DNA of 32,568 nucleotides from a virus. The notes below the pieces were generated by a model. It did no database searches, was not told the origin of the DNA, and saw only the letters and a list, made by a program, of their open reading frames with translations. Shown piece after piece: positions 3,758 through 26,356 of this stretch (position 1 is the stretch's first letter; every line of letters begins with the position of its first letter). The stretch lies in the IMG/VR virus record IMGVR_UViG_3300036466_000103, positions 64,001 through 96,568 of that record; one strand, given 5' to 3'. The position numbers and the translations under genes are program-made.

Positions 3758-3914
3758 TTGCCTACAGTAATGTATAAGGCTCTACAATCTCGTATAAGGC
3801 GTTTTAATCTTCTGTAGGTGCGAGCATTAGGGTTAGACCCCAGAACGTCTTAGAGCGCATTACAGAGGCTTACAGCTTTTCATGCTAAATCTTCCCTTTC
3901 ATGCAAAATAAAGC

Positions 3915-6870: not shown

Positions 6871-6892
6871 AAACCCCGCTAATGCGGGGCTA
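6871..6892 (-). terminator. Terminator at end of leftward operon
   Basis: Read leftward, GCCCCGC, loop ATTA, GCGGGGTTTC. The stem (6874-6879 / 6884-6889) overlaps the last codons of the 398-aa gene, so it ends the long leftward transcript. Confidence 0.7.
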
Positions 6893-8075
6893 GTAAACAA
6901 CTTCTACTATCCCAGAGGGCAACCACAACCATGTCAGTGGTGTCTATTCCAAAATGCCTTAGAGTTTGTAGGAATGTATAGTTTTTCTGGGATTTCACTG
7001 TGTTAGCTCGCTTAGGGTCAATACCGAAACTTATCCATAAGTCTTTGACTGACATCTTAACTCCATTGAATTCAACAGAGCGAACCCTCTCAGGCACCAA
7101 CTGCACAGCCTCCTCGAAAGGTATGCCCAAACGACTCTGCGCCCCTTCTACCCTGCTTTTAGATGTCCCATAGTGCTTGCACCAATCCTCTTTATACTTT
7201 GACACACCATCAATCGTATAAAGAGTCCTCCCATCATGCTTTGGATGCTCACGTATCAACTTGATCAGCTTGCTTAGGTTGTTATTACACTTATCTATAT
7301 AAAGATTCAGGAGGGCAGAGGATACATGAAGGTAGTCCGAAATCTCATCCTTACTTGTAAACTGATACCAAACCCCATCACTTGTGGTCATGACATAGGC
7401 TGGACTTTGAGGCTTTTCATTATACACAAGACAAGCATATAAAGAAGAGTCCTTCCAGCCACTGCTCGGGCTTAACCTAGTAACTACAGTTTTATAGTCT
7501 ACATCATACTCCTTGCAAAGAAGCTTCAGAGACAATTCATTACCGTCCGAATCAACCACCACCTTACCCTGCAAAGAAATCTCGCGGAGTCTTAGTATTT
7601 CATCAATATCAGTGATACCCTCACGAATTCGCGCATAAGCAAAAGAATAGGCAGCAATATCCTCCCTGAAAAACTCTTTGATGCGCACGTAGAAGCCTTT
7701 GTATGTGGCATACAGATTGCCTGTCCCTGTGAACAAACGGTTGACGCTCTGATGCAGGAATAAGCAAGTGTCAGGACCATACACCTTATTGCCATCAAAC
7801 ATGAAATCTTTATCTAGGGCTTTACCTTCCCAATCTTGTTCAACCATCCAGCCCCTGAAGGCCATAAAGCTCCACCACCTCTCATCTACAGTGCAACCAA
7901 TATACGTTTTGTTATTCCTTTGGTATGCCGGAGAGTAGCATCTAGCGAACATGTTCTTCCACACCTTGTAGAAAGGACACCTCCACTCAACTCCATTAGC
8001 ATCCCGTATGCTGACTTGGTAATCAGCATCATTGATCCCAACACCGTAGATAGTTCTATTCTTTCTCTTTTTCAC
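6879..8075 (-). CDS. Homing-endonuclease-like or DNA-binding protein (398 aa)
   Basis: GTG start at 8075 with AGGAGGGG just upstream. Residues about 30-130 carry the layout of a widespread phage nuclease-like domain: W-x-x-M-F-x-R-C-Y, Y-x-G-C-T-V-x-x-R-W, a GKALDKDF segment, then KVYGPDTC and VNRLF. This resembles HNH-associated proteins, but I do not see a full HNH triad. The rest holds three spaced copies of a helix-turn-helix-like unit of the form K-x-x-C/W-K-x-Y/F-G/D-x-x-x-x-x-V (near LLCKEYDVDYKTVVTRL, DWCKHYGTSKSRVEGAQSRL and DLWISFGIDPKRANTV), as in modular DNA-binding tails of homing enzymes. Last gene of the leftward operon. Selfish endonuclease or regulator; undecided. Confidence 0.75.
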   Translation of the reverse strand: MKKRKNRTIYGVGINDADYQVSIRDANGVEWRCPFYKVWKNMFARCYSPAYQRNNKTYIGCTVDERWWSFMAFRGWMVEQDWEGKALDKDFMFDGNKVYGPDTCLFLHQSVNRLFTGTGNLYATYKGFYVRIKEFFREDIAAYSFAYARIREGITDIDEILRLREISLQGKVVVDSDGNELSLKLLCKEYDVDYKTVVTRLSPSSGWKDSSLYACLVYNEKPQSPAYVMTTSDGVWYQFTSKDEISDYLHVSSALLNLYIDKCNNNLSKLIKLIREHPKHDGRTLYTIDGVSKYKEDWCKHYGTSKSRVEGAQSRLGIPFEEAVQLVPERVRSVEFNGVKMSVKDLWISFGIDPKRANTVKSQKNYTFLQTLRHFGIDTTDMVVVALWDSRSCLLAPH

Positions 8076-12980: not shown

Positions 12981-13502
12981 TTACAACCAAGGCTTAGCAC
13001 CAATCAACTCACTAAGACCTTCCAAAGAATACTCATCAAGGTCAGTCTCACTCTGAAAGCCTTTTCCTGCAATGTTGACTATACCTCTACCTGCCTTGTC
13101 AGCATCACCAATCCCGATAATATCATAAGGAAGCGTGTGTAGCCAGCTTTTCATTGGTTTTGGATGAGATGTAAGCAATGCGAGAGCATTAAACCCAAGC
13201 ATGTGTAGAGCTGAAGCTTTGAATACACCCTCCACAATGAAAAGCTCTTTCTTGCCAGGGTTAAGAGTCTCAAGCCCCCAACATGCATTGACACCACGTT
13301 GGCTGTAGGTGAAATATCTTGCCTCCTTTGGGTGATTCACCTTCTTCTCAAGAACATCTGGTCTGTATTGCTGGAAACCAACAAACTGCCCACTCAAATT
13401 ACTCAAGTAGACAGTTAGGACACAATTATCAGTGTCAAGCACTTTGTTCACATACCTACTTGGATCATAATTGCGTGATAGCAAGTGCTTTTGTAAGTTC
13501 AT
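12981..13502 (-). CDS. Stand-alone TOPRIM (primase-like) protein (173 aa)
   Basis: Residues 85-140 hold the two hallmarks of the TOPRIM fold: KELFIVEGVFKASAL, with the catalytic-type Glu91, and GIGDADKAGRG, with the metal-binding Asp133-x-Asp135. The N-terminal 80 residues resemble the small beta domain that precedes TOPRIM in phage primases. There is no zinc finger at the start and no helicase domain after it, unlike T7 gp4. It may be the RNA-polymerase half of a split primase, or a TOPRIM nuclease. ATGA overlap with the upstream 193-aa gene. Confidence 0.8.
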   Translation of the reverse strand: MNLQKHLLSRNYDPSRYVNKVLDTDNCVLTVYLSNLSGQFVGFQQYRPDVLEKKVNHPKEARYFTYSQRGVNACWGLETLNPGKKELFIVEGVFKASALHMLGFNALALLTSHPKPMKSWLHTLPYDIIGIGDADKAGRGIVNIAGKGFQSETDLDEYSLEGLSELIGAKPWL

Positions 13503-15040: not shown

Positions 15041-16300
15041 TCACATGCTAGGTGTGAATGCACCATTAATTACGGAGCCCTCACGAATAACCTTGCCTGC
15101 TGGGAATTGACAAATCAGCGAGTCCTTGTATCGAGCTTGGTAGGATACGGTCATCCATTTACCAATGTAGTCTCCTTTGTTTTCAAGAGCCTCTTTACGA
15201 AATTGCATATCACCCATGACACAGCTAAAGGTGTTTGGTGCAAGATCATTCTGTAGGACAAACACAGCGTTTCCTTGCTTATCCTTCACAACATCAAGGA
15301 TCTGAAACTCACTATCGAACATTAGTTTATACTTGAACAAGCCACTAGACCGTTTACCACTCTCATACAAACCGCCCGGTAAGCGATACATGATTCCTTC
15401 ATACCCACGACTAATGCAGTCTTTAAGTTGAGATGTAAGATCCTCTACAGAGTAAGCTGTGCGATATTTAACCTCCACAAGTGAGGGATAGCCCTCAAAT
15501 CGCTGCCCAATTTCCTTCAGTGTAGACAGACGCTCATCAAAAGGAACTTCAAGCTGCGCAACATCAAATACGTGGAACTCTAGTTTACTGCGTAGGTCAG
15601 CAATCGCATGGGCATTATTCAATTCACCGACAAGTCCAAGATATTTCTGTGGATCACTTGCAGCGAGTCCTTTGTTGATTGCGACTGCTAACTTCTTTTC
15701 GGCTTCCTTGATCTTAGCTTGAGGGTCTGTACGTTGGACAGCAGAGTTGATGTCTTGAAGCACAGGACCATACAAGAAAGCCTCCCCATCAAAAACCTCT
15801 CCTGGATTCATAACCTCAAGTAGCTGTGCTTCGATGTGAGGGATTGAAATAGCTTGACCTGTGCGTGACTGTAGACTAACTTCTTTAACGTCTCCTACAA
15901 GCTTGCAGACAGCCATGAGACGAATTCCGTCCAACTTATCCGAGGTAAACACACCATTTTCAATGTCTGAGTCTTTACCTGCCTTGGTGTGATCTTTAGC
16001 CAACATGGCGAGGATGGGAAGCTCATCAAGCTCCTCTTTAGAGAAACGATAACCTTTATCCAATTGAATCTTAATACGAGACTCAGCCTCAAACACAGCT
16101 TGCTGATATGCACTACGCCCTTGCTTACCCTCTGTGAAGAACTCAAGCTTCTCAGTGAGCTTACCATTCTCTTTGCCGTGCTTGATTGCTAGAACATTAC
16201 GCTCCACTTGCTCAACATGACAAATGTACTGCTTGGCTGTGACACCCCAAACCTTATAAGACTTGTCTTTATTCAGACCAAACATCTGCTTACTGAACAT
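15041..16300 (-). CDS. ATP-dependent DNA ligase (419 aa)
   Basis: The adenylation-domain motifs are present in order: SDKLDGIR with the nucleophile Lys122, VFDGEAFLYG (III, about 169-178), FHVFDV (IIIa, about 242), YEGIMYR (IV, 300-306) and GLFKYK (V, 320-325). The last ~90 residues fit an OB domain (GKWMTVSYQARY...). The enzyme seals nicks in duplex DNA through a Lys-AMP intermediate. Residues about 13-84 precede the core and look like a WGR-type domain (KVWGV, HGKENGKLTEKLEFF, then a helix ending LDKGY). The ATG at 16300 overlaps the upstream gene by 11 bases; an ATG seven codons earlier lies deeper in it. Confidence 0.93.
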   Translation of the reverse strand: MFSKQMFGLNKDKSYKVWGVTAKQYICHVEQVERNVLAIKHGKENGKLTEKLEFFTEGKQGRSAYQQAVFEAESRIKIQLDKGYRFSKEELDELPILAMLAKDHTKAGKDSDIENGVFTSDKLDGIRLMAVCKLVGDVKEVSLQSRTGQAISIPHIEAQLLEVMNPGEVFDGEAFLYGPVLQDINSAVQRTDPQAKIKEAEKKLAVAINKGLAASDPQKYLGLVGELNNAHAIADLRSKLEFHVFDVAQLEVPFDERLSTLKEIGQRFEGYPSLVEVKYRTAYSVEDLTSQLKDCISRGYEGIMYRLPGGLYESGKRSSGLFKYKLMFDSEFQILDVVKDKQGNAVFVLQNDLAPNTFSCVMGDMQFRKEALENKGDYIGKWMTVSYQARYKDSLICQFPAGKVIREGSVINGAFTPSM

Positions 16301-16538
16301 CTTCAATCTTCTCCATTTCAACAGTGTAGCCCATAAGGGACTGATCAGTGTACACGAATTTAAGTCGGTAGTTGTTAAAATCTACAAATGGATTCTGCAA
16401 CACCCACTGAGCCACGTAACACTCCTGGTTATCATACAAGAATTTACGAGCTTGTGCCATCATTTCCTCTCGACTCTTACCAACCAATTGCTGAGCCTTG
16501 AAAATCTCATCAAGGTCAGCTTGTTTAATGTCGATCAT
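16290..16538 (-). CDS. Small hypothetical protein (82 aa)
   Basis: The start at ATG 16538 overlaps the upstream stop (ATGA). The first 50 residues are helical (DLDEIFKAQQLVGKSREEMM), the rest strand-like (YRLKFVYTDQSLMGYTVEME). It precedes the ligase with an 11-base overlap. No family recognised. Confidence 0.7.
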   Translation of the reverse strand: MIDIKQADLDEIFKAQQLVGKSREEMMAQARKFLYDNQECYVAQWVLQNPFVDFNNYRLKFVYTDQSLMGYTVEMEKIEDVQ

Positions 16539-16762
16539 GCGTCCTCCCACACCACTTCGGTTACAACTGTCTGTTTGGCTTGTAGAACTGCAAGTTCGGC
16601 ATCATACAAGCTGTCACGAGATGTAAGTAAATACCAGTCATAAGACCCAGCAGGTCGATATTGTATATTGAAGGTAATGAAATCACCACGAGTTTCCTTA
16701 ACAATACGATATTTCTTAGGGCTAAAAGCTAATCCGTATGTTATTGATTGATTATTACTCAT
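16535..16762 (-). CDS. Small hypothetical protein (75 aa)
   Basis: MSNNQSITYGLAFSPKKYRI, with two strand-like segments (YRIVKETRGDFITFNIQYR and DWYLLTSRDSL) followed by a helix with alternating charge. It resembles the 70-aa protein at 16962 in pattern: strands with a YRIVK/FRIVKKA opening, then a helix. They may be distant paralogues. ATGA overlap on both sides. Confidence 0.7.
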   Translation of the reverse strand: MSNNQSITYGLAFSPKKYRIVKETRGDFITFNIQYRPAGSYDWYLLTSRDSLYDAELAVLQAKQTVVTEVVWEDA

Positions 16763-16965
16763 ACAATTACCTTATATTCAAAAGGACCAAAATGCAAACT
16801 CTGAGAATGACCATACTCTACTTCGGATACAGGAATTGTACGCTCATAAGAACCGTTGTCACCAGAAAGCTTGCCAGAGAAAGCTTCAGTGTGAATCAAA
16901 TCACCACTCTTGTTATAAATCTGTACAGACGCATCACCATATAACTTAGCTACTTGAATCCTCAC
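16759..16965 (-). CDS. Small hypothetical protein, GTG start (68 aa)
   Basis: GTG at 16965 with AAGGAGG seven bases upstream; it overlaps the previous stop (GTGA). MRIQVAKLYGDASVQIYNKS is followed by further strands (GSYERTIPVSEVEYGHSQSL), which suggests a beta sandwich. No family recognised. Confidence 0.7.
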   Translation of the reverse strand: MRIQVAKLYGDASVQIYNKSGDLIHTEAFSGKLSGDNGSYERTIPVSEVEYGHSQSLHFGPFEYKVIV

Positions 16966-19827: not shown

Positions 19828-20709
19828 TCAGAATTTAATATATGGATTGCCAACACAAATTACATTTTGAATCTGCAGCTCCCACCAAAGTTCAATCATC
19901 TGGCTGCGATCATCTACAACGCCACAGATGTTATACTTGTTTGCCAGCTTTGTCCAGAAGATTTCTTCCTTTACAACAGAATCTTTACGTAAATCACCTT
20001 CTTCACGCATATGTAGCTCTTCAAAGTAGTGTGCCCCGACCCACCGATTCAACCACATCTCTGTTTCATAGCGGCACTCATCAGAGCGACCACTGACAAT
20101 GATTACATCATAACCTTGCTTTGAGTAATTTCGAAGCATGTCGATGACAAAGTGTCGTGGTGTATCTGTGTCAACTTTACTCCACTCGAAGGGTCCACGA
20201 GAAACCATCTCTGCAATCGTACCATCGATGTCGAAAATAACTGCCTTTGGTAGCGATTCATCTGGAGTGTATGTAACACGACCATTAAATTCACACCACT
20301 GCAACCACTGTTTATAAATTACGTCAGCACCAACACCGTTGGCTCGCAAGTTATCTCGACGTACAGCCTCCTCACGAGTAATTGGGAAAGACTTCACCTC
20401 AACAATGTACCCAACACTCTCAAGCGTCTCACACAGGTTCTTACGTGTCTTAGGATTGAGACCAGTGTCGGAGATAATAATGTTCTCACCGTTAGCCCAA
20501 CTCTCCATGATCATTTGACCTTGAATACGGGTCACTTCCTTCTCATTTGCATTGCTAAACTTGTATGTAGACCAATCAGCTCCAGGCTTTACGATGTTAA
20601 ATCGTATCCAATCACGATTGATATCCCGCCAACCACCTTTGCTTACCAACTCATTTGCAAATGTAGTTTTTCCGCTGCAAGAGATGCCCACTGCCAAAAT
20701 TGCTCGCAT
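19828..20709 (-). CDS. pnkp: T4-type polynucleotide 5'-kinase / 3'-phosphatase (293 aa)
   Basis: Very close to T4 Pnkp in length (301 aa) and layout. The N-terminal kinase has the P-loop GISCSGKT (residues 8-15) and the DTGLNPKTR loop (81-89). The C-terminal HAD phosphatase has IFDIDGTIAEM with nucleophile Asp160 and Asp162, then VSGRSDE and a KDSVVKEEIFW segment that matches T4's KDDVVKEEIFW, and finally DDRSQMIELW. The enzyme phosphorylates 5'-OH ends and removes 2',3'-cyclic or 3'-phosphates. With RNA ligase 1 upstream it repairs tRNA cut by host anticodon nucleases. The ATG at 20709 is two bases after the previous stop. Confidence 0.95.
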   Translation of the reverse strand: MRAILAVGISCSGKTTFANELVSKGGWRDINRDWIRFNIVKPGADWSTYKFSNANEKEVTRIQGQMIMESWANGENIIISDTGLNPKTRKNLCETLESVGYIVEVKSFPITREEAVRRDNLRANGVGADVIYKQWLQWCEFNGRVTYTPDESLPKAVIFDIDGTIAEMVSRGPFEWSKVDTDTPRHFVIDMLRNYSKQGYDVIIVSGRSDECRYETEMWLNRWVGAHYFEELHMREEGDLRKDSVVKEEIFWTKLANKYNICGVVDDRSQMIELWWELQIQNVICVGNPYIKF

Positions 20710-20710
20710 A

Positions 20711-21115
20711 TTAAACACTCTCCATGTAGTGCTTGTGTTTATTAATAAAATTTGCCATGTCTTGATCAACAAGCACGCCATCTTCCATCGCTGCTTTGTA
20801 AAGAGCCTTAACTGGGTCTGCTTTGTCCTTGTGTGTCCAGCACCACCACTCCAGCTCTTCAATTTCTTCTGCGCTAAGTACAGAGTGAAGTACATCTGAC
20901 CAATTATCGCAAAAGTCCATATGGTTGATTGCAAACTCGTGTGGAGAAGTATTACGGTGCAACCACTTATATAGAGCGCCAGAGGTATTGTAGTTTAGCC
21001 CATAAAAATCTTTGATACCTTTATCTCGGATTTTCTTGCCATCTTCCAAGCGCAACTCAAAACCAATGATTGCGGACAGCAAGTCGCTCTTATCTACTTT
21101 AACAAAGCCTTTCAT
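20711..21115 (-). CDS. Hypothetical protein between Rnl1 and Pnkp (134 aa)
   Basis: MKGFVKVDKSDLLSAIIGFE, then a helical protein rich in Trp and acidic residues (LSAEEIEELEWWCWTHKDKA) with a C-terminal KALYKAAMEDGVL helix. AGGAG precedes the start. Its place inside an RNA-repair pair may mean a related role, but nothing in the sequence shows one. No family recognised. Confidence 0.75.
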   Translation of the reverse strand: MKGFVKVDKSDLLSAIIGFELRLEDGKKIRDKGIKDFYGLNYNTSGALYKWLHRNTSPHEFAINHMDFCDNWSDVLHSVLSAEEIEELEWWCWTHKDKADPVKALYKAAMEDGVLVDQDMANFINKHKHYMESV

Positions 21116-21144: not shown

Positions 21145-22245
21145 TTACTTCAAGTGTTCTTCAACAAGCTTTACCTTGCGATTTGTCTCAAGTGACATAA
21201 TGACATCGCGAGGGCTTTTGTCAAGCTTTCTTGCAGAGAACATGACAGCGGAGAGCTTTGGTGCATTAGACATCACGGCTTGCGCAAACTCTTTCTGACC
21301 TTCGATGTTTTTGATTTCAACGTAAATTTCTGTAGCAGACTCAACAACACCCCTCCAGACAGACTCAATCTCACGGATACGATCACCATACTCAGGGAAG
21401 TAGGAGATTACCTCATCAGACTCTCCTGTAACTACAACCGGAATCAATGCACTGTCACGTCCCATATTCATGGAATCACGTAGGTGGTGTACAGCAACAT
21501 ACTCAGGAGACTTAATCTTTGAAACCGGAACACCATCCTGGTATACAACAAAACCTTCATCAAGGTCTTTAAGCTCACGAGCAGTCTTCAGGCAGTCATC
21601 TACTGTATTGAATCGATATTCTTTAATCTCGTGCGCACCAAACATTAGAGCTTGACCTTTCTCAGACTTAATGTGGTCACCAGAAAAGTTCCCACGGCAA
21701 GCCAGATAATGCAGTTTGTAGCCTTCATAACACTTGACAACACGATTTTCTACACTTGTTAGTTCGAAGATATAAGTGAATCCTTCAAAAAGAAATGTGT
21801 TGCACTTACTTTGGAAGTGATTATCGTCTTCACAAGAAAGAGCCTTAAGCACAAGCTCACGGAATGTAACACCAAAGCCCATGCAATCGCTCTCACCATA
21901 CACTGTACCCTTGGTGGAGATGTTCCAGCGACCTTTATGGTAGTATATCTTGATCAGGCTACCGTCCACCTTCTCGTACACCACAGCACGACCCCAATCA
22001 ATTTCAGGGGTAACATTTAAAGCCTCGCCATGGTTGAAGAATCGTGAGAACGAACGACTAACCACTTCAAGTGTATCAGACTGAAGGATTAAGGATCGAC
22101 ATTCCATAACGATTGGGTCAGTCTTGGGGCTGTCAATCTGGTTGTAGTTCAACATCAGGAGGTCATCCACTTTCTTTACGCTGATTGCGTATTGCTCGGT
22201 AAGAGCTTGCAACCCATTTTCTTTGATAAATTCAATCACTTTCAT
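21145..22245 (-). CDS. rnl1: T4-type RNA ligase 1 (366 aa)
   Basis: The Rnl1 nucleotidyltransferase signature is complete. MECRSLILQ (47-55) and SFSRFFNHGEA precede the active-site motif YEKVDGSLIKIYY with nucleophile Lys92. Further motifs are WNISTKG, FEGFTYIFELTSVENRVV (motif IIIa/IV region), DLDEGFVVYQDG and VSKIKSPEYVAVHHLRDS (motif V lysines). T4 Rnl1 is 374 aa. It joins a 3'-OH and 5'-PO4 of broken RNA through ligase-AMP. First gene of the leftward operon, with a divergent promoter region upstream; Pnkp lies two genes downstream. Confidence 0.93.
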   Translation of the reverse strand: MKVIEFIKENGLQALTEQYAISVKKVDDLLMLNYNQIDSPKTDPIVMECRSLILQSDTLEVVSRSFSRFFNHGEALNVTPEIDWGRAVVYEKVDGSLIKIYYHKGRWNISTKGTVYGESDCMGFGVTFRELVLKALSCEDDNHFQSKCNTFLFEGFTYIFELTSVENRVVKCYEGYKLHYLACRGNFSGDHIKSEKGQALMFGAHEIKEYRFNTVDDCLKTARELKDLDEGFVVYQDGVPVSKIKSPEYVAVHHLRDSMNMGRDSALIPVVVTGESDEVISYFPEYGDRIREIESVWRGVVESATEIYVEIKNIEGQKEFAQAVMSNAPKLSAVMFSARKLDKSPRDVIMSLETNRKVKLVEEHLK

Positions 22246-22308
22246 TCTTTCTCTCCATGGGTATTTAAATTAGTGCCTATGTAAGCTCTTGTGAGGCGGT
22301 CTGAGACG

Positions 22309-22337
22309 TTTTACAGAATAAGGGATAAGCTGGTCAA
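22309..22337 (-). promoter_or_regulatory. Promoter for the leftward operon
   Basis: Read leftward: AAAAGG then TTGACC (22337-22332) and, 17-18 bases on, GTAAAA/TAAAAC as a weak -10. The AAAAGGTTGAC start matches the early promoter at 588. Placed 65-90 bases upstream of the RNA ligase ATG. Confidence 0.55.
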
Positions 22338-22479: not shown

Positions 22480-22743
22480 GCTTGGATCTGACCACGATAG
22501 GAAGTATTTTCCTGTCCTTAGAGTGGGTTGTGCAAAGGGTCTTAAAATCAACACCTCTAAATCAGCTACAAGCCACGTAGGTCAAGGGCTGTATAGCTTC
22601 AAAACACTCATTTTTGCCTGATATGGGGATGTTGATTAGATTTAGATTGGCTTTTGATCTTGATCTGTGTAGGATATGTGCTTACTAAGCTATGACTTAG
22701 AGAGGTGATACTAATGTAGATAATATAGGAGATGTAATAGAGT

Positions 22744-24018
22744 ATGTGTACACTCGGTGTAGAAGATGAGGAATCAGAAGAAAGAGAGGAAATCAACACA
22801 AAGCTGCTAGCGTATGACATCCGTATCATACCGGAGGTTAGCGGTAAAGTAAGGTGGTGGGATTACACAGACAAAACTGTCCTAGGTGTTCTGGTTTGCA
22901 ATCTTATTTCTTGTATTACTAAATGTTCCATCCTTGTGTACAGTCGAGATAAGAATGGAGCAAAAGGAAAGAGAAAGATAACGGCAAGATCAGTGATAAA
23001 ATGTGTTGACTGGTTGGAGCAACAAGGGTACATTATCAACCATGTTGCAAAGCCTCAACCAAGGAAGGAAAAGAGAACAATCAGTTGGATACAGCCGACA
23101 GAGAAATTCACTAACGAATTCCCTAAGAAAGAGACAAGAAAGAAATCAGAGAAAGTCTATGTCCACTCTGTGCCATGTGTTGAGGTTAGAGGCAAAGACA
23201 AGAAACCCATGGTTTATGTAGAAACCGAATATTCAAAATCAGTTGAGAGAGGAGTTAGGAAATTGAACGAAGAACTGGATCAAGCAAGCATTGTGGATGT
23301 ACAGGGTAACGAGCTGACAAACATTTACTGCCGGCTGTTTAATGAATCATTTGATAACGGCGGTCGTTGGTATCGTGCAGGCATTCTGAGTGTGCGGAAC
23401 AAGATTGATAGCGCCCGTATGCGTATCAAGATCAATGATGAGAGTGTTGTAGAGGCTGACTACTCAAACCTCCACTTCCGTATCGTTGCAGCCCTCAATG
23501 GTGTGGGTGGTGCATCACTCCCATATGACATCTACGAAGGTATCCAGCAAGACAGTACAAACTACACAGAACGTGCAATCGTAAAGCATGCAGTGAATGT
23601 CATGTTCAATGTAAAGAATGCAAATGCAGCAGCTCTGGCTGTCAATGCTTTCATCAATGCCGTACCATTCTATGACAAACCAATGAATGGTCTTGGCTGG
23701 GGTAAAGTGATCGTAGAGGCTGTTGAGGAGAAATATGAGGAATTCAAACACTGGTTCTACAACCCTGAGTTCTCAGCTCTGAAGATCCAAAAGCATGATA
23801 GTGACCTTGCTGCTGATGTGATTGAAAAGCTTCTGGACAAGCGCATTGCTGTACTACCAATCCACGATGCCTTCATCTGCCAAGATAAACATATGGACTT
23901 CCTCATGGATACTATGGGAAAATGCTTCCGTCAGCGTTTCAACCACGATGGGCTGATTCCAATTGGTGTTAAATACCTGGAAAATGATCGAGTGACAGAA
24001 CAAAAGGTATTGGTGTAG
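22744..24018 (+). CDS. Family-A-like polymerase, TV-Pol type, with N-terminal winged helix (424 aa)
   Basis: Three motifs of the superfamily-A polymerase palm and fingers are visible. Motif A is VEADYSNLHFRI with Asp239. A motif-B-like helix is RAIVKHAVNVMFN with Arg277 and Lys281. Motif C is LPIHDAF with His374-Asp375. The order and the short length without a 3'-5' exonuclease domain match the minimal 'TV-Pol' family described from mobile elements and viruses, proposed to prime and extend DNA. Residues about 60-110 (KRKITARSVIKCVDWLEQQG) resemble a winged helix, and residues 110-160 are a basic linker. The start is weakly supported: AGGAG lies ten bases upstream. Likely replication initiation or polymerisation; activity is inferred. 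Confidence 0.75.
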   Translation: MCTLGVEDEESEEREEINTKLLAYDIRIIPEVSGKVRWWDYTDKTVLGVLVCNLISCITKCSILVYSRDKNGAKGKRKITARSVIKCVDWLEQQGYIINHVAKPQPRKEKRTISWIQPTEKFTNEFPKKETRKKSEKVYVHSVPCVEVRGKDKKPMVYVETEYSKSVERGVRKLNEELDQASIVDVQGNELTNIYCRLFNESFDNGGRWYRAGILSVRNKIDSARMRIKINDESVVEADYSNLHFRIVAALNGVGGASLPYDIYEGIQQDSTNYTERAIVKHAVNVMFNVKNANAAALAVNAFINAVPFYDKPMNGLGWGKVIVEAVEEKYEEFKHWFYNPEFSALKIQKHDSDLAADVIEKLLDKRIAVLPIHDAFICQDKHMDFLMDTMGKCFRQRFNHDGLIPIGVKYLENDRVTEQKVLV

Positions 24019-24033
24019 AGTGTACATACATCC

Positions 24034-24137
24034 TACAAGCTCCTGTGAGGCGTTCTGAGAGCTTCTAGAGCAAAAGACAATACTTGGTTAGGGTTTATTA
24101 ATTAAACGTCTTACAAAGCCTCACAAGAGCTTGTAGG
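24034..24137. repeat. 20-bp inverted repeat with AT-rich loop
   Basis: CCTACAAGCTCCTGTGAGGC (24034-24053) faces GCCTCACAAGAGCTTGTAGG (24118-24137); 19 of 20 positions pair. The 64-nt interior contains the palindrome GTTTATTAATTAAAC. A third partial copy (AAGCTCTTGTGAGGC) lies at 22283-22297, upstream of the polymerase gene, so the repeats flank that gene. There is no U-tract, so it is not a normal terminator. Confidence 0.75.
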
Positions 24138-24161
24138 CTAATACACAATCGGAGATTTAAG

Positions 24162-25153: not shown

Positions 25154-25230
25154 GGGTCTTTAGCATAATTGGATAATGCTGTCTGCTCATAACAGATAAG
25201 ATGCGGGATCATACCCCGTGGGACTCACCA
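25154..25230 (+). tRNA. tRNA with CAT anticodon (Met or Ile2)
   Basis: A full 77-nt cloverleaf with encoded CCA. Acceptor GGGTCTT/GGGACTC; D stem GCAT/ATGC; anticodon stem GTCTG/CAGAT with loop CTCATAA (anticodon 25188-25190); T stem GCGGG/CCCGT. CAT could read AUG, or AUA if C34 becomes lysidine. It lacks initiator features. The T loop is ATCATAC instead of TTCnAAT: bases 54 and 58 are swapped to A and T, so a 54-58 pair remains possible. Confidence 0.9.
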
Positions 25231-25539: not shown

Positions 25540-25661
25540 TTACAAAGATTGTTCTGGATAAAGACAATCGAATGCTTCGATTAGGACTTGGTAAGCACGA
25601 TGGTAAATGGTTCTTCCGAGTTGATTTGTGGACTACTGGTTATCGGATTGCAAAGAAATAA
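25536..25661 (+). CDS. Small hypothetical protein, TTG start (41 aa)
   Basis: TTG 25536 overlaps the previous TGA (TTGA). The product (M)ITKIVLDKDNRMLRLGLGKH...WFFRVDLWTTGYRIAKK is a compact strand-rich basic protein. The start codon is rare, but the coupling and the clear stop just before the RNA locus support it. Confidence 0.55.
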   Translation: MITKIVLDKDNRMLRLGLGKHDGKWFFRVDLWTTGYRIAKK

Positions 25662-26280: not shown

Positions 26281-26356
26281 CTGCCCTTAGTGTTCAACGG
26301 TAGCACACCTCGTTTGGGACGAGGAAGAGAAAGTTCGAAACTTTCAGGGCTGACCA
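26281..26356 (+). tRNA. tRNA-Pro(TGG)
   Basis: A 76-nt cloverleaf with CCA. Acceptor CTGCCCT/AGGGCTG with one T2-T71 mismatch; D stem GTGT/GCAC; anticodon stem CCTCG/CGAGG with loop TTTGGGA (anticodon 26315-26317, G37); T stem GAAAG/CTTTC with loop TTCGAAA. C1-G72 with A73 fits bacterial proline tRNA. It lies in the middle of the structured noncoding locus, directly after the AACCTCT/AGAGGTT helix. Confidence 0.92.

What the first reader, a model, noticed from the sequence alone, without database searches (positions are those of the whole stretch)
22744..24018. Compact family-A-like polymerase fused to a winged helix
The gene has clear A (DYSNLHFR), B-like (R-x3-K) and C (HD) motifs but only 424 residues and no exonuclease domain, unlike T7 or T5 polymerases. 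It resembles TV-Pol, a little-studied family predicted to combine primase and polymerase activity. An N-terminal winged helix would give origin recognition, and inverted repeats flank the gene. The enzyme could initiate phage replication alone or be a selfish module.
Basis: partly seen in the sequence, partly recalled or inferred. Interest (0 to 1): 0.72.

Follow-up and report, generated by a model that had tools for sequence, protein, structure and literature searches.

The report
Compact accessory phage polymerase (divPolA2)
This phage gene encodes a small, probably active relative of DNA polymerase I that many marine phages carry besides their normal polymerase; the family was named in 2024, its job is unknown, and it comes in two active-site types that cholera phage isolates appear to exchange.

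Summary
Window 22744-24018 (+) is an open 424-codon gene. Its motifs A (D239), B (R277-x3-K281) and C (D375) are invariant in 28 aligned relatives and match family-A polymerases by profile and by predicted fold. The family is not new: it was described in 2024 as divPolA2 (PMC11348598) and is PHROG 4756 "unknown function". Some TV-Pol features are shared, but membership is not shown. A winged helix in the N-terminus has weak support. The flanking inverted repeats are real but dispersed in the phage genome, so they do not mark a mobile unit. New here: two active-site classes, His at motif A+5 with a small residue after motif C (24 of 28, plus one Trp) or Glu at both places (3 of 28, one clade); and ICP1 isolates that carry one class or the other at one locus (43 against 39 records, no overlap). 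Most likely an accessory template-directed polymerase for priming, repair or recombination, not the replicase; RNA or DNA product is open.

The parts
22744..24018 (+). divPolA2-type compact family-A polymerase gene, 424 aa
22873..23118 (+). N-terminal domain (residues 44-125), winged-helix-like by weak evidence
   Evidence: secondary-structure order; low-confidence model, Z 3.2-3.9 to mostly winged-helix regulators
23359..23382 (+). GGRWYRAG block with R208 (27 of 28 members)
23449..23484 (+). motif A, D239, with H244 at the +5 (steric-gate) position
   Evidence: D239 28 of 28; position +5: His 24, Glu 3, Trp 1
23572..23610 (+). motif B, R277-x3-K281, N289 at K+8
   Evidence: R and K 28 of 28
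23788..23877 (+). motif C block, DS (352-353) and H374-D375-A376
   Evidence: D375 and S353 28 of 28; class pattern
22277..22322 (+). flanking repeat copy, left
   Evidence: E 2e-12
24027..24077 (+). flanking repeat copy, right, 5' arm of a hairpin
24092..24141 (-). flanking repeat copy, right, 3' arm of a hairpin

Best explanation
The gene encodes an accessory, catalytically competent template-directed polymerase of the divPolA2 family: a family-A palm and fingers without exonuclease and without a recognisable thumb, carrying an N-terminal domain that probably binds nucleic acid (winged-helix-like). Replication is done by the phage's separate PolA with its primase-helicase. The compact enzyme most likely makes or extends primers at special DNA structures (repair, recombination, restart), in the manner proposed for TV-Pols. 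Shown: family, conserved catalytic residues, predicted palm fold, presence beside a regular polymerase. Inferred: activity, substrate, DNA rather than RNA product, role of the N-terminal domain.
For: Catalytic D239, D375, R277, K281 invariant in 28 of 28 divergent members. Fold Z 14.0 to family-A DNA polymerases; core profile best hits DNA polymerase I, E 0.0021 and 0.038. Regular PolA in the own contig, in the contig of its nearest relative found and in 4 of 4 further records tested. Residue +5 after the motif A Asp is bulky in 28 of 28, never Gly, whereas 4 of 4 phage RNA polymerases read here have Gly. Shewanella phage KASIA carries a divPolA2 and a separate RNA polymerase.
Against: 25 of 28 members have a small residue (Ser or Ala) after motif C, as in the RNA polymerases read here (Ser, Cys, Ala, Ser), where T7 DNA polymerase has Glu. 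Mitochondrial RNA polymerases match the fold almost as well (Z 13.5). The whole-family profile matches two KSY1 RNA polymerases, while a core-profile scan of the T7 genome found neither its DNA nor its RNA polymerase. No context gene proves a repair or priming role. The model is of middling confidence (mean pLDDT 66).
Confidence: 0.55

Rival explanations
1. It is a single-subunit phage RNA polymerase whose N-terminal domain recognises promoters and which transcribes a subset of phage genes.
For: Proposed as one option by the 2024 paper. Motif C block DS or ES followed by HDS/HDA is RNA-polymerase-like in 25 of 28 members. Fold match to mitochondrial RNA polymerase Z 13.5. Weak PHROG hits to 'RNA polymerase' families among 16 members (E 0.034 and 0.061, one member each). 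ICP1 is said to have no RNA polymerase of its own (PMC9040626).
Against: No Gly at motif A+5 in any of 28 members against 4 of 4 RNA polymerases. KASIA has both. No promoter-like element tied to the enzyme was found.
Confidence: 0.2
2. It is an exchangeable cassette gene whose product serves conflict with competitors or host defence (for instance with a small DNA-binding partner), rather than general DNA metabolism.
For: ICP1 records carry either the gp100 allele (43) or a very different allele (39), never both, between flanks 98.6-99.1 percent identical. The second allele sits beside an HTH_3 gene that six records annotate as HigA. HTH genes upstream in 3 of 11 scanned loci; GIY-YIG-type nucleases downstream in 2 of 9 scanned.
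Against: Neighbours differ between phages; the window and its nearest relative show no such small upstream gene. Swapping of many loci is usual in ICP1 (PMC9040626). No toxicity or defence evidence.
Confidence: 0.15
3. It is a replication initiator and sole polymerase of the phage.
For: Compact palm plus possible DNA-binding domain. The own PolA gene is interrupted just before motif C by a group I intron.
Against: A PolA and a primase-helicase are encoded on the same contig; intron-interrupted polymerase genes are usually spliced (general knowledge). A family-A DNA polymerase was found in all six genomes tested.
Confidence: 0.04

Closest known systems
divPolA2 (diverged PolA variant 2; Virol J 2024, PMC11348598)
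   Same: Same family: tblastn links the window protein to Barbavirus members (26 percent identity, E about 4e-4), shared PHROG 4756; palm without exonuclease, extra N-terminal domain, encoded beside a regular polymerase
   Different: Window member comes from a 96.6 kb virus contig with a PolA (not PolB) replicase; nearest relative found is 41 percent identical (L024). Active-site classes and ICP1 allele exchange are not in section 13 of that paper
TV-Pol family (Iyer 2008, PMC2579912)
   Same: Two palm aspartates, RxxxK, GxRxY block, His at motif A+5 as in the Ma-LMM01 ORF
   Different: No D5-helicase link seen (not searched for); profile match is weak and covers one block only (E 0.005)
CcPol-MP primase of SCCmec (PMC7581432, PMC10061031)
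   Same: Small family-A polymerase without full accessory domains, on an exchangeable element
   Different: CcPol keeps Glu at the E710 position and partners an OB-fold protein; 24 of 28 members here have His there and no OB-fold partner was identified
Phage single-subunit RNA polymerases (T7 gp1, KSY1, KASIA)
   Same: Palm fold, small residue after motif C
   Different: Gly at motif A+5 in 4 of 4 RNA polymerases, in 0 of 28 here

Membership tests
divPolA2 | Sequence relationship to the Barbavirus protein | tested here: met
   E about 4e-4; PHROG 4756 in 16 of 16
divPolA2 | Intact family-A palm motifs A, B, C | tested here: met
divPolA2 | No 3'-5' exonuclease domain | tested here: met
   424 aa; no exonuclease match
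divPolA2 | Encoded in addition to a regular DNA polymerase | tested here: met
divPolA2 | N-terminal domain unrelated to known thumbs | tested here: inconclusive
   weak winged-helix matches only
TV-Pol | Two catalytic aspartates and RxxxK in fingers | tested here: met
   28 of 28
TV-Pol | Invariant arginine in a beta-hairpin before motif A | tested here: inconclusive
   R208 27 of 28 and R225 28 of 28, but which one plays that part was not tested
TV-Pol | Profile match to a TV-Pol protein | tested here: inconclusive
   Ma-LMM01 ORF E 0.005, one block; that this ORF is the published TV-Pol is inferred
TV-Pol | Two-helix thumb | tested here: inconclusive
   low confidence in parts of that region of the model
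TV-Pol | Association with a D5-like helicase | not tested
   the contig has a Toprim+DnaB primase-helicase; D5 was not searched for
Single-subunit RNA polymerase (T7 type) | Gly at motif A+5 | tested here: not met
   His in the window, 0 of 28 Gly; T7 gp1, two KSY1 and KASIA enzymes have Gly
Single-subunit RNA polymerase (T7 type) | Pfam RNA_pol match | tested here: inconclusive
   no match in the own contig, but all 14 control genomes were silent too

The most novel reading that the evidence does not exclude
divPolA2 holds two functional classes. The common class (His at motif A+5, DS...HDS/HDA) may be a primer-independent or ribonucleotide-tolerant polymerase. A derived clade (Glu at +5, GS...DE) has taken on a DNA-polymerase-like site by linked changes at three positions. 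Phages such as ICP1 exchange the two classes at one locus, as part of an arms race over replication.
Probability: 0.22. Interest if true: 0.75.

Novelty: new member of a known kind. Interest (0 to 1): 0.45.

Why it matters
An unassigned polymerase family is carried by more than 200 sequenced phages, ICP1 among them, beside the replicase. The two active-site classes and their exchange in ICP1 turn the open question of whether divPolA2 makes DNA, RNA or primers into one that can be tested by comparing natural alleles. It also bears on how family-A enzymes move between DNA and RNA synthesis.

Tried and rejected
Rejected: mobile unit bounded by inverted repeats. The repeat has a fourth strong copy upstream of a UvrD-type helicase gene (contig 25567-25616) and weaker ones elsewhere (window 3833-3875, E 7e-4; L004 13853-13883, E 0.0025); it looks like dispersed intergenic punctuation.

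Rejected as proof of a functional pair: the UvrD-type helicase. It lies next to divPolA2 in HNL01 and about 1.8 kb away in 1.121.O, and is 43-45 percent identical to the window phage's own, but 241 phage records carry it, many of them Escherichia and Acinetobacter phages, groups that gave no divPolA2 record, and the nearest relative's contig gave no match (that empty answer had no positive control).

Led nowhere: Pfam, NCBIfam and PDB sequence searches with single proteins or the first alignment; PDB search with the N-terminal profile (no significant hit); N-terminal domain folded alone (mean pLDDT 44); profile comparison with the own PolA (no match); viral-contig scans, which gave three distinct related contigs in all. 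The domain-alone fold search returned mainly winged-helix regulators at Z 3.2-3.9, below the level its own notes call meaningful. N4 and T7 genomes gave no match to the core profile.

Neighbour statistics are not proof: only 9 downstream and 11 upstream neighbours of 27 relatives were scanned, the downstream ones chosen mostly for length; two more downstream genes had sub-threshold HNH or AP2 matches.

No print source for the ICP1 exchange of divPolA2 alleles was found in searches and in passages of PMC9040626, PMC8844924 and PMC7145576. That library lacks most subscription papers, supplements were not open, and the ICP1 review says in general that operons are swapped.

Full report
What is there. 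The window is bases 64001-96568 of a 96,568-base virus contig. The gene at 22744-24018 (+) is an intact 424-codon frame. It lies beside a leftward block of genes, the nearest being an RNA-ligase-like gene at 21145-22245; an intergenic stretch of about 500 bases separates them.

Family. The protein matches PHROG 4756, 'unknown function', with E 5e-54. tblastn found it in 204 phage records at E up to 1; queries with other members reached 278 and 290 records at E up to 1e-3, mainly Vibrio and Rheinheimera phages, with Aeromonas, Shewanella, Pseudoalteromonas and Klebsiella phages. Nearly all listed members are annotated as hypothetical proteins; one, in Pseudomonas phage vB_PsaM_M1, is called DNA polymerase. 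The family was described in 2024 as divPolA2 (PMC11348598; section 13 read in full; other passages): an active-looking palm, no exonuclease, no known thumb, an N-terminal domain of unknown kind, in some genomes two or three copies, beside a regular polymerase; repair DNA polymerase or RNA polymerase were offered as roles. A text search found the name divPolA2 only in that paper and its preprint.

Active site. In 28 aligned members (window, 26 phage records, one IMG/VR contig), D239, R225, Y264, R277, K281, S353 and D375 are identical in all, H374 in 26, R208 in 27. The predicted structure (4 sequences, mean pLDDT 66, pTM 0.58) matches family-A polymerases: Foldseek best E 2.2e-5, and Z 14.0 (rmsd 4.3, 240 residues) to apPol, 13.6 to T7 DNA polymerase, 13.5 to yeast mitochondrial RNA polymerase. 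The 28-member core profile finds DNA polymerase I in PDB at E 0.0021 and 0.038 and mitochondrial RNA polymerase at 0.41; its alignment puts motif A, R-x3-K and HD on the known ones, with the residue at motif A+5 opposite the Glu of DNA polymerase I.

Two classes. At motif A+5 the members have His (24), Glu (3) or Trp (1). This is the E710 position of E. coli Pol I, used against ribonucleotides according to a passage of PMC7581432. The three Glu members (1.170.O, ICP1 2017_Dha_X, P018-4) also have GS instead of DS at 352-353 and Glu after motif C, and form one clade (support 100/99). T7 RNA polymerase, two KSY1 enzymes and the KASIA RNA polymerase have Gly at +5 and Ser, Cys, Ala and Ser after motif C; T7 DNA polymerase has Glu at both places. 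That the two KSY1 proteins are RNA polymerases is my reading of their motifs. So the common class is RNA-polymerase-like at motif C but not at motif A, and the Glu clade is DNA-polymerase-like at both. The Ma-LMM01 ORF, which I take for the TV-Pol named by Iyer et al. (inference; PMC2579912 section 4, part 1 of 2 read), has His at +5.

Not the replicase. The same contig has a PolA with exonuclease and polymerase domains (contig 33958-35970) next to a Toprim+DnaB primase-helicase (31585-33318), and no family-B polymerase match (five control genomes rang). A PolA-like match was found in the nearest relative's contig and in ICP1, ICP1 2017_Dha_X, KASIA and KP13-16 (4 of 4 with a match, 2 of 4 above the Pfam cut-off).

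ICP1. ICP1 ORF100 is a member. In isolate 2017_Dha_X the genes gp98-gp102 are replaced, and a different divPolA2 stands there. The gp100 allele is in 43 records, the other in 39, with no shared record; the two proteins are less than 36 percent identical, flanks are 98.6 and 99.1 percent identical. The alleles belong to different active-site classes. Six of the 39 records annotate the gene before it as HigA. The ICP1 review reports swapped loci in general and says ICP1 is not predicted to encode an RNA polymerase (PMC9040626, passages).

N-terminus and repeats. Predicted elements in the order helix 44-59, strand 64-67, helix 81-93, strands 97-100 and 113-118 fit a winged helix; the domain alone gave a poor model whose best structural matches are mostly winged-helix regulators at Z 3.2-3.9. 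Sequence searches are not significant. I call it likely but unproven. The inverted repeats flank the gene, but a further strong copy lies before the UvrD-type helicase gene and weaker ones elsewhere.

Verdict. A real, conserved, probably active polymerase; a new member of a family already named; not the phage's replicase. Mechanism is open; I favour a priming or repair polymerase over transcription because of the bulky residue at motif A+5, at moderate confidence.

Noticed in passing
own contig 35934-36168 (L003:15934-16168): A group I intron (Rfam RF00028, E 2e-11) interrupts the phage's PolA gene just before catalytic motif C; an HNH-like frame follows (16312-16899, by eye). Splicing was not tested.
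   Followed up: partly
window 22559-22599 and L007:5852-5891: A 41-base noncoding match (83 percent) upstream of divPolA2 in the window and in Vibrio phage 1.121.O, able to form a hairpin by eye; a related arrangement may exist in HNL01 and L024.
   Followed up: partly
L009, L031, L032, L035, L036, L025 just upstream of divPolA2: Small genes of 59-73 codons that look by eye like ribbon-helix-helix proteins, some overlapping the divPolA2 start; of the five scanned (L032 was not), none had a significant Pfam match.
   Followed up: partly
window 6879-8075 (-): HNH homing-endonuclease-like gene, 398 codons.
   Followed up: no
window 12981-13502 (-): Short primase-like protein of 173 codons (PHROG 849) besides the full primase-helicase elsewhere on the contig.
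   Followed up: no
window 15041-16321, 19828-20934, 21145-22245 (-): DNA ligase, polynucleotide kinase and RNA-ligase-like genes: a nucleic-acid repair set beside the polymerase gene.
   Followed up: no
window 25154-25230 and 26281-26356 (+): tRNA-Met and tRNA-Pro genes.
   Followed up: no
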